From Spiroplasma apis B31 (GTDB taxonomy: Bacteria > Bacillota_I > Bacilli_A > Mycoplasmatales > Mycoplasmataceae), in contig NC_022998.1 in the NCBI RefSeq assembly GCF_000500935.1, positions 744,001 through 808,000 of the forward strand: a stretch of DNA of 64,000 nucleotides, in the 5' to 3' direction. Positions 58,381 through 64,000 of the stretch are shown in pieces. A program made the position numbers and the translations under genes. How positions within the stretch are numbered: position 1 is the stretch's first letter; the number at the start of each line of letters is the position of its first letter. A model generated the notes under the pieces. That model was not told the DNA's origin and made no database searches. It saw only the letters and a program-made list of their open reading frames with translations.

Positions 58381-59715
58381 ATGACAAAAGAACTATTAAA
58401 AAAAATTATTATCTCAGAGAATATAAAATATATAAAATTACAATTTACTGATATGTTGGGGTTTCTTAAAAGTATTGAAATACCTGCTGAGAAAATTGAT
58501 AAAGCATTAGACAATGAAATAATATTTGATGGATCTTCGATAACAGGATTTTCTAAAATAAATGATGCAGATATGTATCTTTATCCCGATTTGAATACTT
58601 GATTAATTTTGGAGATGGAATCTAAAAAAGAATATAAAGTAGGAAGACTATTATGTGATGTTTACACTTCAAATAAAACACATTTTGAAAGTGATCCAAG
58701 AAGTATTTTAAAAAAATGCATACAAAAAATGAGAGATTTAAAAATAGGAGAATATTTTAATGTGGGTTTAGAACCAGAGTTTTTTTTATTCAAACTTGAC
58801 GAAAATAATACTCCAATTTTAGAACATACAGATGATAGCGGGTATTTTGGTACGCCTTCAATTGATACATCTTCTTTAGTCAGAAGAGAAATAATGTACG
58901 AACTACAAAAGTTAGGATTTAATATGGAAGTCTCTCACCATGAAGTTTCAAGATCTCAACACGAAGTTAATTTTGAATATTCAAATGCCTTGGAAACATG
59001 TGATAAATTACAAACTTTCAAAGTACTTGTAAAAGCTGTGGCAAAAAAATATAATATGCATGCAAGTTTTATGCCTAAGCCTCTAAAAGGTATGAATGGT
59101 AATGGGATGCACGTAAATTGCTCCATTGCTGACAAAAATAATAATAATTTATTTTATGATTCATCTAAGGAAAACGGTTTAAGTGAGTTGGCTATACATT
59201 TTATAAACGGTGTATTAAAACATGCAAAAGATATATCTTTATTAACAAACTCTACAATAAATTCATTTAAACGATTGGTTCCTGGATATGAAGCTCCATG
59301 TTATATAGCATGAAGTGATTCCAATAGGTCAACAATGATAAGAATACCAGCCGCCAATGATAAAGCAAAAAGAGTTGAGGTGCGTTCGGTAGATTCAACT
59401 TCCAATCCTTATCTAGCTTTAAGCGCAATACTTATGGCCGGAATAGATGGTATATTAACAAAAGAAACTACTCACCAATCAATCAAGAAAAACTTGTTTA
59501 GCCTTTCAGAAGAAGAAAGAAAAAATTTAAGTATAGAAAATTTGCCTACAGATTTAAAAGAAGCACTTAATTTTTTTAGAAACTCGGACTTAATTAAAAA
59601 AGTTTTTGGAAATGATATTATTGATAAATTCATAACTATCAAAGAAAAAGAATGAAAAGATTACGTTTCAGAAATAACAGACTGGGAAATTAAAAAGTAC
59701 TTTAACTACTATTAA
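58381..59715 (+). CDS. glnA: Glutamine synthetase, type I
   Basis: The 444-residue length and motifs fit the Gram-positive GSI-alpha type: FDGSSITGF near residue 52, GLEPEFFLF (metal/glutamate site), VEVRSVDSTSNPYLAL, the ATP site NGNGMHVNCS, and KRLVPGYEAPCYIAW with TGA as Trp. It makes glutamine from glutamate, ammonia and ATP in the cytoplasm. The GlnA adenylylation Tyr of type I-beta is not expected. The ATG at 58381 is preferred over 58369 because GGAG is spaced seven bases from it. It stands alone with its own terminator next to the restriction-like island. Confidence 0.93.
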
Positions 59716-59749
59716 AAAATGCTAATCATTTTATTGATTAGCATTTTTT
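59714..59749 (+). terminator. Rho-independent terminator
   Basis: AAAAATGCTAATCA and TGATTAGCATTTTT pair around TTTAT, directly after the glnA stop. It may also serve the convergent minus-strand gene. Confidence 0.92.
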
Positions 59750-59771: not shown

Positions 59772-60434
59772 TTAAAATTGTTTTTTAAACAAATTTATTA
59801 AAGTTAGATATATATCATCTAAATCATAACCCAGAATACCCGCATCATTTTTTATAAGATCATAACCACAATCTTTAGCCATTTTGTAAATTTGGTCACA
59901 AGTAACTTTCTTATTTTTGTCTTTACCATAAATGATTTCTAATGTATCATAATTATCTAAATAATCAATAGCAAGTCAAGAAACAACAGTGCTATAAAAA
60001 AGCTCTTTACCTTTTTTTGATAATTTATTAAAGTTTCTATAAAGAATTTCAAATAAGCGAGTAGAATCAAACTTTGTATCAAAATTTAAAAACTCCTCAT
60101 TTATAATTTTATATTCGTTTGATATTTTATCTGTTCGTTTTATTATTCGAAAAGTTTCTAGTACATCTAAGTATTGTCTAATTGCTGAAAGACTAACTAT
60201 TCGCATTTTCTTATCGGTTGGTGTAATTTTAATTCCATTACATACTAGACTATATTGATTGTCTATATACTTTTCTACTTTTATGAAAGGTATGCGTTTA
60301 CTTGATTCTATAGATGTAAAATTCAAATAAGTCTTATCTATTATTGTTGTTATCTTAGTTTTGACGTTTCAAAATTTATAATCCTCTTTATCTTTAAATA
60401 AGTTAAGAATTCTTTGTACTTTATTCAATTTCAT
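59772..60434 (-). CDS. Unknown protein, third gene of methyltransferase/nuclease module
   Basis: The 220-residue soluble protein begins MKLNKVQRILNLFKDKEDY. It has an N-terminal helical part, a beta-rich stretch (YLNFTSIESSKRIPFIKVEK, VCNGIKITPTDKKMRIVS), and a helical C-terminal half (LSAIRQYLDVLETFRIIKRTDK; LFEILYRNFNKLSKKGKELF). The AIRQYLDVL...IKRT stretch could be a winged helix, but I cannot confirm it. It overlaps the end of the nuclease gene by 14 bases in another frame, so it was gained or kept as a unit with it. Not recognised otherwise. Confidence 0.65.
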
Positions 60435-62889
60435 AAATATCATTAACCAATATCTTAGCTAACTTTGCACTTCGATCATCTATCATTTTAAAATCAAAGT
60501 GGTCAATATCAACTAAGCTTTCGTTTTTATTTGTGAAAGGTATTTTAGCTAACCTTGAATCACTTGCAATATAATTATTAACTTTTATTTTAAAGGGAGA
60601 GTTACTTAATTCTGAATTATTTTTAGAATCCAACAATAAAAGATTACCAATTCTATTTAAAAATGCAGCGTGCTTATCTTTTAATTCTTGTCTGTTAAGG
60701 TTTTCTTTTTCGTTTAACATTTCTCACCACTCCTGATTTGGAGTTTTAGGCATGATATGTTCTACTGTAGATACTTTAAATATAACTTCTTGACAAGCTT
60801 TTGTACTTAAATTTAATCAGTAATTTTCTAGTCTTTTTAAAAATATTACTTTCATGTAATTATTTTGTACATCCCTATTTTTTAATGAATCGATCGCAAC
60901 GTCTTTTGAAGGCAATTTATTTTCCAACGGTATTAGTAGATGTTCATTTTCTTTAGTTATTTTTGTTTTTCCTGCAAATCATTCTTGTAAATGTTGAGGT
61001 AAATCTTGCTTGAAGTTAGAATAATTTTCAAAAAGTTTTAAATATCTTACCAATTTTATCATAACAGCGCCTTTTAATGATTGACCTGTACCTTTAACTT
61101 GCAATAACATAATAAATCATCTTTCTATTTGGAATAAACATTTTTCAAGAAGTTGCTCATTAAATAGATGTAGTTTTCGTTCAGCAGAGCTTCAAGAATT
61201 GTCAGAAAAAACATCAAATAAATAGAATAAACATATTGAGAAGTCTTTTTCGTCTATGTTGGAAAGAGTTGTTCTAAACTTATAAAACTCACTTGTAATA
61301 TTTTCATAATCTTTAACTAATTTCACATTTTTATAAATATAAAAATAACGACCTATCTCACTGCAGATAGAGGCGTACTTATCAAAAGTAATATTTTTTT
61401 CATTGTAAAACTTTTTAAAAGCTTTTAATAAACTTTTTTTATTTTGTTTTAGATCAATGTTTGTTGTACCTTTAAGCGCAATCTTATAAGTCAAAAAGTT
61501 GAAAAAGAAAGCCTCATATTTTTTATTTTGTTCATCTTCTTTACCTTTGAATTTGGGAACTAAACTCAAATTAAAATACTTGTTGTACTCATCTACAACT
61601 CTTTTTGAATTTTCCTTAAATACTTTTTGATCGACCATATTATAAATATAATTTTTCAACATATCAAAAGTATCTAAATCTTTTCCTTTCGAGTTAAGAT
61701 TCTCGAATACTTCCATTTCGTTTATATCATCATCATTAAACCTTATACAAGAGACAATAAAATTATTTGCATAATAATTATATATATCCAAATTTTTTTC
61801 TATGGTATAGTTTTTAAACACACTGTAAAAATACTCATAATTTGTTATAACTTGACTTCGTGTGAGTAGCTTCAAATCATTTTTAAACTTGGATGCAATA
61901 TTATATCCTGTAAGAACCTTATATAAACTGTATATATTATTTTCTGATGTAGAAGTACTATTCTCATATTTAATTTTTATTAAGGCATCTGAATGTAAAT
62001 CATTTATTTTGTAATCAAATAAGTCTGTTAACTCTGTTGGAATGGATTCAGAAAAATCATCCAGTTCTTTTTGTTTATCTTTAATAACATCAAATATAGC
62101 TTTAAAAAGTATTAATGAGGTTGTTACACGTTGTTGACCATCCATTAATCTTACTTCTTTTGTAAAGTTACCAACTTGGCTAGGAAACATTCTACATGCC
62201 ATCGTTCCAAAATATATTTGTTCATTTGAATCTTTTTTATCAAATAACTGCTCAATTAGTTCTTCACACTCTTCTTTAGTTCATCGGTAGTCCCGTTGAT
62301 AAGTAGGTATGAAAAAACGTATCTTGTTATTTAAAACGAAATCTCCAATAGATAATTTCTCTGTAATTATTTGATTATTCTCATAATCAAAATCTTTTTT
62401 GTCTTTTAAATTCTTCGCCAGTTTGCAAGTATTATAATAAATATCATCATCACAATCCGGCAAGTTTATTTTTGTGTCTTCAAAACTATAAATAATAAAA
62501 TGTAAAATTTTACGTAAAGTTAAAATGAAATTTACCTTTGAGGTAAATGATAATTGATATTCAACATAAGATAAATCATTATGATGCACACCTACACTTC
62601 TTATAGAGTTTAATCATTTGAAAGACGCTAAAATATTTGAGGGTAAGGCATCACTTTTTTTGAGTTTATAAAATAAGTTAAAATTATTTATTAACTCTCC
62701 TAATGTTTTTTTTATTCTTTCTTCTTCATTCATCACTTGTTTTAAAAGTTTTTCTAACAACTTAGCTGAATCTACTTGTAAAGTATATTTGTCATCACTT
62801 AAAAGACTATCTTCGATAATAGATATTTTTTCATAAACTCATTTGTATTTATGATAGTCTTTCAAAAATTCAAAGTTTTTACTAATCAT
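60421..62889 (-). CDS. GmrSD-like nuclease: HEPN/DUF4145-like + DUF262 + DUF1524 (822 aa)
   Basis: N-terminal residues 1-190 are helical, with LLEKLLKQVMNEEE and SIRSVGVHHNDLSYVEYQ resembling DUF4145/HEPN domains. DUF262 (ParB-like, GmrS) then shows IPTYQRDYRW at 194-203, LMDGQQRVTTS with DGQQR at 250-254, and FENLNSKGKDLD near 394-405. DUF1524 (GmrD, HNH) shows VEHIMPK with His711 and RIGNLLLLDSKNNSELSN. The family cuts modified phage DNA in an NTP-dependent way. The ATG at 62889 follows AGGAG and lies inside the methyltransferase gene end (8-base overlap). Coupling with a C5-methyltransferase is unlike stand-alone type IV enzymes. Confidence 0.85.
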
Positions 62890-64000
62890 TTTTAGAATCT
62901 CCTCTTTTTTTAATTATTTTGTTAAAAATTGCTACTAAGACATTCACAACTATGGAATTTCCAGCCTGCCTATACAGAACTTCTTTTTTTAAAAAATCAT
63001 TTTGAAAAATTTTATCTACATCAGCTTCGTGAAAACCCATTAGCAGGTACGCCTCTCTTGGTGTTATAAATCTATACCGCGCTTTTTTTCCTCCACCTAA
63101 TTTTGTACTTTTCAGATCTATGTTTCCTGCATTAGGGTGCCGGTCTTGTTTAGTTGTTATTGTGCTACAATGAGTTAAATAATATTTATTATCCACTTCA
63201 TAATATTTATACTTAGCTTGTTGCTCGCGAGAGTTTTTTTTTGTTTTTCTAAGTGTAAATAATAATCTATTGTCATCATACATACGTTTTCTACTAACGG
63301 TCCTGTTTGGTATTGCTTTTAGAGCTTCATTTTTATCATTAACATTATCGTAATCAATATGTAAAAGCTCATTTAACTTACGTGAAATATTAATCTCACT
63401 TGATATATCTTTTGGTTTATTTTTTTCCGTTATGTATCCATTTTTTTTAAATGTATCATGAAAAACACCATCATCGGCATCCCTTACACTTAGAGCATAA
63501 ACTCTTTCCCGAGATTGGGGGACACCATACTCTAAGGAATTTAAAACGTAAGTTTGTGTTTTGTATCCAAGACTAGATAAAAACTCAAGTCATTCTTCAT
63601 AATCTTTTCTATGTCTTTTAGAAATCATATTTTTCACATTTTCTAGTAATAAATATTTTGGTAGTTTTTTTATATCATCAAGTTCAATTAATAATCTTTC
63701 TATTTCTCACAATAATCCACTTCGTGTATTTGAACCCTTGGCCATACCTTGGTTAAATCCGTGGAAACTACCAGCAACACTAAGATCTTGACACGGGAAG
63801 GAATAAGTTAACATTTGAAATTCATCAATGTTCTTTATCAAATCTTCGCCTTTAATTTTTGTAATGCTGCCTTGATTTTTAGAATTAACAATAGAACTAT
63901 AAAGAAGTTCTTTTACATTTCTTTGTAACCCAATAACGTTTTTTGGTGACATAGGTTTTTTAGAATCCCTTGAGTGTTCAAACTTCAGAAGAAACTCATC
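62882..64000 (-). CDS. DNA (cytosine-5) methyltransferase, N-terminal part beyond window
   Basis: The visible ~372 residues include motif IV TYSFPCQDLS (catalytic Cys), SNTRSGLLWEIER, motif VI LLLENVKN, motif VIII QSRERVYAL, the target region with STITTKQDRHPNAG, and motif IX/X RFITPREAYLLMGF and YRQAGNSIVVNV. The catalytic half recalls the Spiroplasma CpG enzyme M.SssI (PCQDLS..G..GM..GS.TRSGLLWEIER), but the target-recognition part differs, so the sequence methylated is unknown. Motif I and the start are outside. Its stop (TAG) overlaps the nuclease start, so the two are coupled. Confidence 0.92.

What the first reader, a model, noticed from the sequence alone, without database searches (positions are those of the whole stretch)
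59772..64000. Overlapping three-gene module: C5-methyltransferase, HEPN-like/DUF262/DUF1524 nuclease and an unknown protein
Seen: the methyltransferase stop overlaps the nuclease start by 8 bases, and the nuclease stop overlaps the unknown gene's start by 14 bases, all on one strand. Known: GmrSD-type DUF262-DUF1524 enzymes are usually stand-alone type IV systems that attack modified DNA. A tightly coupled C5-methyltransferase would instead suggest that methylation marks self, or that the nuclease reads the mark. Inference: this may be a restriction-modification or abortive-defence type not fitting type I-IV, with the small protein as specificity or regulatory subunit.
Basis: partly seen in the sequence, partly recalled or inferred. 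Interest (0 to 1): 0.78.

Follow-up and report, generated by a model that had tools for sequence, protein, structure and literature searches.

The report
Phase-variable GmrSD-type restriction-modification operon in Mollicutes
A set of overlapping genes in a wall-less bacterium looks like an undescribed kind of restriction-modification defence, in which a DNA-methylating enzyme is coupled to a nuclease normally known as a stand-alone attacker of modified phage DNA, and a slippery A-tract in its promoter probably switches the whole set on and off.

Summary
The module is not unique. In 35 of 37 loci across Mollicutes families, picked by the MT alone, the MT is linked to a nuclease or S-carrying gene. 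S occurs after NUC, between MT and NUC, fused to DUF262-DUF1524 nucleases lacking HEPN, or fused to small HNH or DUF3883-like nucleases. So S is the constant partner and the nuclease the exchangeable part, as expected if S reads the target site and MT protects it. NUC resembles DndI/SspE (Z 19-20) plus an HEPN domain. A SauUSI-like PLD-helicase just upstream, outside the window, is an optional fourth gene. Best reading: a phase-variable restriction-modification family with GmrSD-type effectors, known only in hints (M. hominis DCM5). Function, target sequence and the role of S are inferred.

The parts
62882..64000 (-). C5-cytosine DNA methyltransferase (MT), window part; the gene continues to window-equivalent 64204 (440 aa in all)
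   Evidence: PF00145 1.4e-51; M.MpeI 4dkj/8c56 best solved relatives, 5.8e-77 with the family profile; motifs FAGIG, PCQ, ENV, QSRER, GNSIVVNVL conserved in 13 relatives; TRD motif STITTKQDRHPNAG, not the CpG type
60421..62889 (-). NUC: HEPN - DUF262 (GmrSD_N) - DUF1524 (GmrSD_C/HNH) nuclease, 822 aa
   Evidence: structure model pLDDT 79, residues 175-822 match DndI 9jfl Z 19.9, SspE Z 19, BrxU Z 13.7
62470..62883 (-). HEPN domain of NUC (residues 3-140), motif RSVGVHH at 97-103
   Evidence: HEPN chains 3o10, 2hsb, 1ufb, 6m6w at Z 9-10; R-N-x3-H conserved in relatives, H102 invariant
61645..62343 (-). DUF262/GmrSD_N domain (residues 183-415) with PTYQRDYRW and DGQQR nucleotide-pocket motifs
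60451..60882 (-). DUF1524/GmrSD_C domain (residues 670-813) with EHIMP and GNLLLL HNH-type motifs
59772..60443 (-). S: small protein, 223 aa (or 220 aa from 60434), putative target-recognition subunit
   Evidence: homologues in relatives; homologous to N-terminal domains of S-nuclease fusions (control)
60066..60362 (-). winged-helix-like domain of S (residues 28-126); signature FWNVKT at its start and SLSAIRQYLDVL inside it
   Evidence: AlphaFold2 model pLDDT 88.8; many winged-helix chains at weak Z 4-5
59712..59746 (-). terminator-like hairpin after S (AAAAAATGCTAATCA ATAAA ATGATTAGCATTTTTT), shared with the convergent glutamine synthetase gene
   Evidence: read from the sequence

Best explanation
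It is a phase-variable restriction-modification operon of a family spread through the Mollicutes. MT methylates cytosine in a short sequence on self DNA. S, a winged-helix protein, docks with NUC (probably through the HEPN domain) and brings it to the same sequence. Where the site lacks 5mC, the DUF262 nucleotide switch licenses the DUF1524 HNH domain to cut. A homopolymer tract in the promoter spacer switches transcription on and off by slippage, and gene overlap (translational coupling) makes MT, NUC and S switch together, so that the nuclease is not made without its protection. Shown: the genes, domains, homology of S across partners, conserved linkage, tract. Inferred: S as site reader, protection by 5mC, NTP gating, switching.
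For: MT-first sample: 35 of 37 loci (L170-L204, L206, L208) have an S and/or nuclease partner next to the MT (counted by hand); about two thirds of partners overlap the MT stop. Order and form vary: MT-NUC-S, MT-S-NUC, S-NUC fusion, S-DUF3883 fusion, S-HNH_2 fusion. S domains are homologous across these (hhalign 88-99% for the window-type S against each other group, against at most 8.3% for 150 unrelated ORFs). With separate S, NUC has HEPN; with fused S, HEPN is absent. NUC is exchanged behind a kept MT and helicase: L028 vs L040, MT 77%, helicase 71%, NUC 24%. Nuclease decay with intact MT in L033 and L042 fits R-M logic. True CpG-type MTs do not carry this partner. Promoter tract: 36/59 vs 13/512, p about 1e-30. 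Closest solved relatives are DndI and SspE, both paired with a DNA-modifying system (PMC11662687).
Against: No biochemical or methylome data. S was swapped together with NUC while MT stayed similar (L028 vs L040), so S need not share the site with MT. MT can be split by a slippage tract or inversion while NUC stays open (L180, L038), which is dangerous for a plain R-M unless coupling shuts NUC off. L170 has MT and NUC but no S; L038 has S with a NUC lacking HEPN. The winged-helix call rests on weak Z. Most DUF262 proteins of the order lie away from such MTs. Loci L028-L047 were picked with NUC, so only the MT-first set is unbiased.
Confidence: 0.62

Rival explanations
1. Mark-reading defence like SspABCD-SspE: NUC is switched on by sensing the 5mC that MT lays on self DNA, then nicks foreign DNA; S is a regulator.
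For: NUC body matches DndI (Z 19.9) and SspE (Z 19) best. The mark-sensing tyrosine of DndI (Y25) and SspE (Y30) sits in a P-x-Y-Q motif (PMC11662687), which is P195-x-Y197-Q198 and invariant here. DGQQR is conserved.
Against: PxYQR and DGQQR are family-wide and do not prove sensing. The same MT clade is also linked to S-HNH and S-DUF3883 proteins without any DUF262 domain, so mark sensing by DUF262 cannot be the general rule.
Confidence: 0.16
2. Two independent defences side by side: an orphan C5-MTase and a type IV GmrSD-like nuclease that cuts modified phage DNA.
For: DUF262-DUF1524 proteins occur widely without MT, 68 of 102 hits here; the published GmrSD family is modification-dependent type IV (PMC4619093).
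Against: Overlapping order across distant families, S fusions, and exchange of nuclease type behind one MT clade.
Confidence: 0.09
3. Abortive or toxin-antitoxin-like unit: the HEPN domain is an RNase released when methylation fails or phage arrives.
For: HEPN fold and R-x4-H motif; HEPN domains commonly accompany R-M systems (PMC3710099).
Against: HEPN is missing from all S-NUC fusions of the same family, so it is not the core effector.
Confidence: 0.07

Closest known systems
DndBCDE-DndI and SspABCD-SspE (phosphorothioate modification plus DUF262-DUF1524 nuclease)
   Same: DNA-modification enzymes paired with a DUF262-DUF1524 nuclease; best structural matches of NUC; DndI is toxic without the mark (PMC11662687)
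   Different: Modification is by a single C5-MTase, not phosphorothioation; HEPN domain and S subunit have no counterpart; no dnd/ssp genes in the operon
GmrSD / BrxU type IV restriction enzymes
   Same: Same DUF262-DUF1524 body (BrxU Z 13.7)
   Different: Those act without a cognate methyltransferase on modified DNA; this one is tied to an MT and an S protein
Type II R-M systems with an HNH or PD-ExK nuclease
   Same: C5-MTase followed by a coupled nuclease gene; relatives here have S-HNH_2 or S-DUF3883 nucleases
   Different: Effector of the window module carries a conserved NTP pocket and a separate recognition-like subunit
CglI / NgoAVII and SauUSI (PLD nuclease and helicase enzymes)
   Same: The optional upstream gene is a PLD-helicase (SauUSI 7clg 5e-50; PF09565); CglI combines helicase, nuclease and MTase (PMC4267653)
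   Different: Only part of the loci have it; its C-terminal part does not align with SauUSI
M. hominis DCM5 locus
   Same: C5-MTase-like gene followed by a 979-aa DUF1524 protein, suggested to act in defence (PMC10305163)
   Different: There DCM5 was listed as orphan and possibly inactive; no family, S domain or promoter tract was described
M.SssI / M.MpeI CpG methyltransferases
   Same: Nearest MT relatives with a solved structure
   Different: CpG-type TRD (TLTASGANSRIKI) is absent, and CpG-type MTs here have other partners

Membership tests
Type II restriction-modification | Intact DNA methyltransferase | tested here: met
   all C5-MTase motifs present
Type II restriction-modification | Cognate nuclease gene linked to the MTase across species | tested here: met
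   35 of 37 MT-first loci
Type II restriction-modification | Nuclease cuts the MTase's site unless methylated | not testable with these tools
   needs biochemistry
Type II restriction-modification | Cleavage without nucleotide hydrolysis | tested here: inconclusive
   DUF262 DGQQR pocket conserved, which suggests NTP use
GmrSD type IV restriction | DUF262 and DUF1524 domains | tested here: met
GmrSD type IV restriction | Stand-alone, no cognate methyltransferase | tested here: not met
   HEPN- and S-bearing NUCs found here stand next to the MT
GmrSD type IV restriction | Cuts only modified DNA | not testable with these tools
   needs biochemistry
Dnd/Ssp phosphorothioate defence | DUF262-DUF1524 effector fold | tested here: met
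Dnd/Ssp phosphorothioate defence | dndBCDE or sspABCD genes in the locus | tested here: not met
   neighbouring ORFs are MT, PLD-helicase, small-molecule methyltransferase, nucleosidase, glutamine synthetase
HEPN superfamily | HEPN fold with R-x4-6-H motif | tested here: met
HEPN superfamily | RNase activity | not testable with these tools
   needs biochemistry
M.SssI-type CpG methyltransferase | CpG-type target-recognition motif | tested here: not met
   STITTKQDRHPNAG instead of PTLTASGANSRIKI
CglI/NgoAVII R-M | PLD nuclease, helicase and C5-MTase in one operon | tested here: inconclusive
   present but as one fused PLD-helicase, and optional

The most novel reading that the evidence does not exclude
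A methylation-guarded, nucleotide-gated restriction family in which a dedicated recognition subunit S serves interchangeable nucleases, and the DUF262 switch of the GmrSD-type effector checks the 5mC mark as DndI checks phosphorothioate; the whole unit is phase-variable in transcription.
Probability: 0.3. Interest if true: 0.8.

Novelty: new variant of a known kind. Interest (0 to 1): 0.62.

Why it matters
GmrSD-type enzymes are known as stand-alone attackers of modified phage DNA. A widespread family that pairs them with a protective C5-methyltransferase, shares one recognition-like subunit among three nuclease types, and sits behind a slippage promoter would link type II, type IV and phosphorothioate-type restriction, would explain what many 'orphan' C5-methyltransferases of Mollicutes do, and would bear on why these organisms are hard to transform.

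Tried and rejected
(1) That this is the missing restriction partner of CpG methyltransferases (M.SssI, M.MpeI): rejected, CpG-type MTs at L207, L044 and L201 have other neighbours. (2) S as a relative of a solved protein: sequence search gave nothing (best E 0.011) and Foldseek nothing significant; only weak winged-helix matches by VIA-align 2. (3) S or NUC of this type on plasmids: no S, only distant DUF262 proteins. (4) The module outside Mollicutes: the 80 best DUF262 loci in genome contigs gave MT neighbours only in Mollicutes, plus one unlinked case, L081; the S profile hit only genomes of the window's order among 295 genomes of the phylum. (5) Literature: no paper found with DUF262 and Spiroplasma or a DUF262/C5-MTase operon; nearest hint M. 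hominis DCM5.

Full report
WHAT IS THERE. The window is G000:C1:744001-808000 of a 1.16-Mb mollicute genome that must be read with code 4. On the minus strand MT, NUC and S follow each other with overlaps of 8 and 14 (or 23) bases. The finding is cut by the window edge: the MT is 440 aa, and about 100 bases upstream of it ends a further gene of the same strand, a 1000-aa PLD nuclease-helicase. S is followed by a hairpin with a T-run. All four genes are open from start to stop.

PROTEINS. MT is a C5-methyltransferase whose best solved relative is the CpG enzyme M.MpeI, but its target-recognition motif (STITTKQDRHPNAG) is of another type. NUC has GmrSD_N and GmrSD_C domains. Its predicted structure (pLDDT 79) matches DndI at Z 19.9 over residues 175-822, SspE at 19 and BrxU at 13.7; residues 3-140 match several HEPN chains at Z 8-10. 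PxYQR, DGQQR, EHIMP and the HEPN R97 and H102 are conserved, H102 in all ten relatives. S has no family; its model (pLDDT 88.8) contains a winged-helix-like part at residues 28-126, supported only by weak matches. The upstream gene is related to SauUSI and to NgoFVII-type PLD nucleases.

RECURRENCE. In 60 relatives, 20 genomes had a NUC relative, and nearly all stood next to an MT of this family. To avoid selecting on NUC, I then drew loci by MT alone from 298 genomes of the order and read the neighbours: 35 of 37 loci with an MT of this (non-CpG) kind have an S and/or nuclease partner adjacent. The two without are L174 (MT broken by an inversion) and L201. About two thirds of the partners overlap the MT stop, mostly by 8-32 bases. 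Named cases are Mycoplasmopsis gallopavonis NCTC10186 and M. cynos NCTC10142, where the record annotates dcm followed by 'DUF262 domain-containing protein', and Mesoplasma seiffertii (L048). Outside Mollicutes the pairing was not found in the loci looked at.

S IS THE CONSTANT PARTNER. S comes after NUC (window type), between MT and NUC, at the N-terminus of 860-1016-aa DUF262-DUF1524 proteins, or at the N-terminus of about 400-aa proteins that end in an HNH_2 domain (PF13391, 1e-8 and 2e-6) or a NOV_C/DUF3883-like PD-ExK domain (PF13020, 2e-8 and 7e-7). Profile comparison supports one S family: S_after against S_HNH 99.0% over 160 columns, against SNUC_B 97.6%, S_between against S_DUF3883 98.8% over 191 columns; 150 unrelated ORFs from the same loci reached at most 8.3% (single sequences against a profile, so not exactly the same test). 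Two of the other group pairs scored only 52-53%. NUCs with a separate S carry the HEPN motif (one exception, L038); NUCs with a fused S do not, as if HEPN were the docking part that fusion makes unnecessary. That last step is inference.

EXCHANGE. MTs are 44-92% identical while NUCs fall to 19-25% in many of the same pairs. L028 and L040 share MT (77%) and helicase (71%) but not NUC (24%). The nuclease is thus replaced behind a kept MT. In that exchange S changed too, which speaks against a strict one-to-one reading of S and MT specificity.

PHASE VARIATION. 36 of 59 MT genes have a slippage tract (A or T of 13 or more, G or C of 9 or more, or 8 or more dinucleotide units) within 170 bp upstream, against 13 of 512 other genes in the same loci and 12 of 255 with free upstream DNA (Fisher p 1e-30 and 1e-21). 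In the window's genome the sequence is TTGCAA-A16C-TATAAT, spacer 17, -10 box 6/6 (L003:13262-13279, window-equivalent 64261-64278). Relatives have spacers of 14-19 (one 21). This is the layout of the vlp (poly-A) and vmm (dinucleotide) switches of mycoplasmas (PMC10502178). Other MTs carry AG or G tracts inside or at the start of the gene (L177-L181, L052), and two have an inverted 3' end bordered by inverted repeats of 28 nt (L174) or 21 nt (L038) next to a tyrosine recombinase. Switching itself is not shown; no strain series was available.

HELICASE. Close relatives of the upstream gene (bits above 390) lie next to the MT in 13 of 17 cases in the family (one search compared); a more distant paralogue is present in most genomes without MT. 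I treat it as an optional second effector.

INTERPRETATION. The comparative evidence fits restriction-modification with a shared recognition-like subunit and interchangeable nucleases. Whether the DUF262 switch checks the methyl mark as in DndI (PMC11662687) is open. The GmrSD family study (PMC4619093) lists type I R-M genes among neighbours but no such MT pairing in the passages I read; the M. hominis DCM5 locus (PMC10305163) is the only earlier glimpse found. I rate it a new variant of a known kind.

LIMITS.

Noticed in passing
L038:5134-9232 and L174:6764-8151: MT 3' end lies inverted next door, between inverted repeats (28 nt perfect in L174, 21 nt at 90% in L038) beside a tyrosine recombinase: probable DNA-inversion phase switch of the methyltransferase.
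   Followed up: partly
L207:4842-5972, L044:10372-11496, L055:25-1146: A 373-376-aa protein (PIIRRNF..., weak HNH_2 match) sits next to CpG-type methyltransferases in L207 and L044: candidate restriction partner of M.SssI-like CpG enzymes, long called orphan.
   Followed up: partly
L052:1-60, L178, L179, L180:6782-6812, L177, L181: AG or G repeat tracts inside or at the start of the methyltransferase gene, likely translational phase variation.
   Followed up: partly
L194:367-6350: One MT followed by two tandem S-NUC pairs.
   Followed up: no
L182:5793-7028: A 411-aa protein with a membrane-like N-terminus and a GIY-YIG-looking stretch lies between MT and the S-NUC fusion.
   Followed up: no
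G000:C1:598447-599076 (outside the window): A second DUF262 protein in the same genome, far from the module.
   Followed up: no
L028:3778-5575, L040:2166-5473, L042:4925-5788: Poly-A/T tracts of 16-22 nt also precede small lipoprotein genes in relatives, a likely surface-antigen phase-variation set.
   Followed up: no
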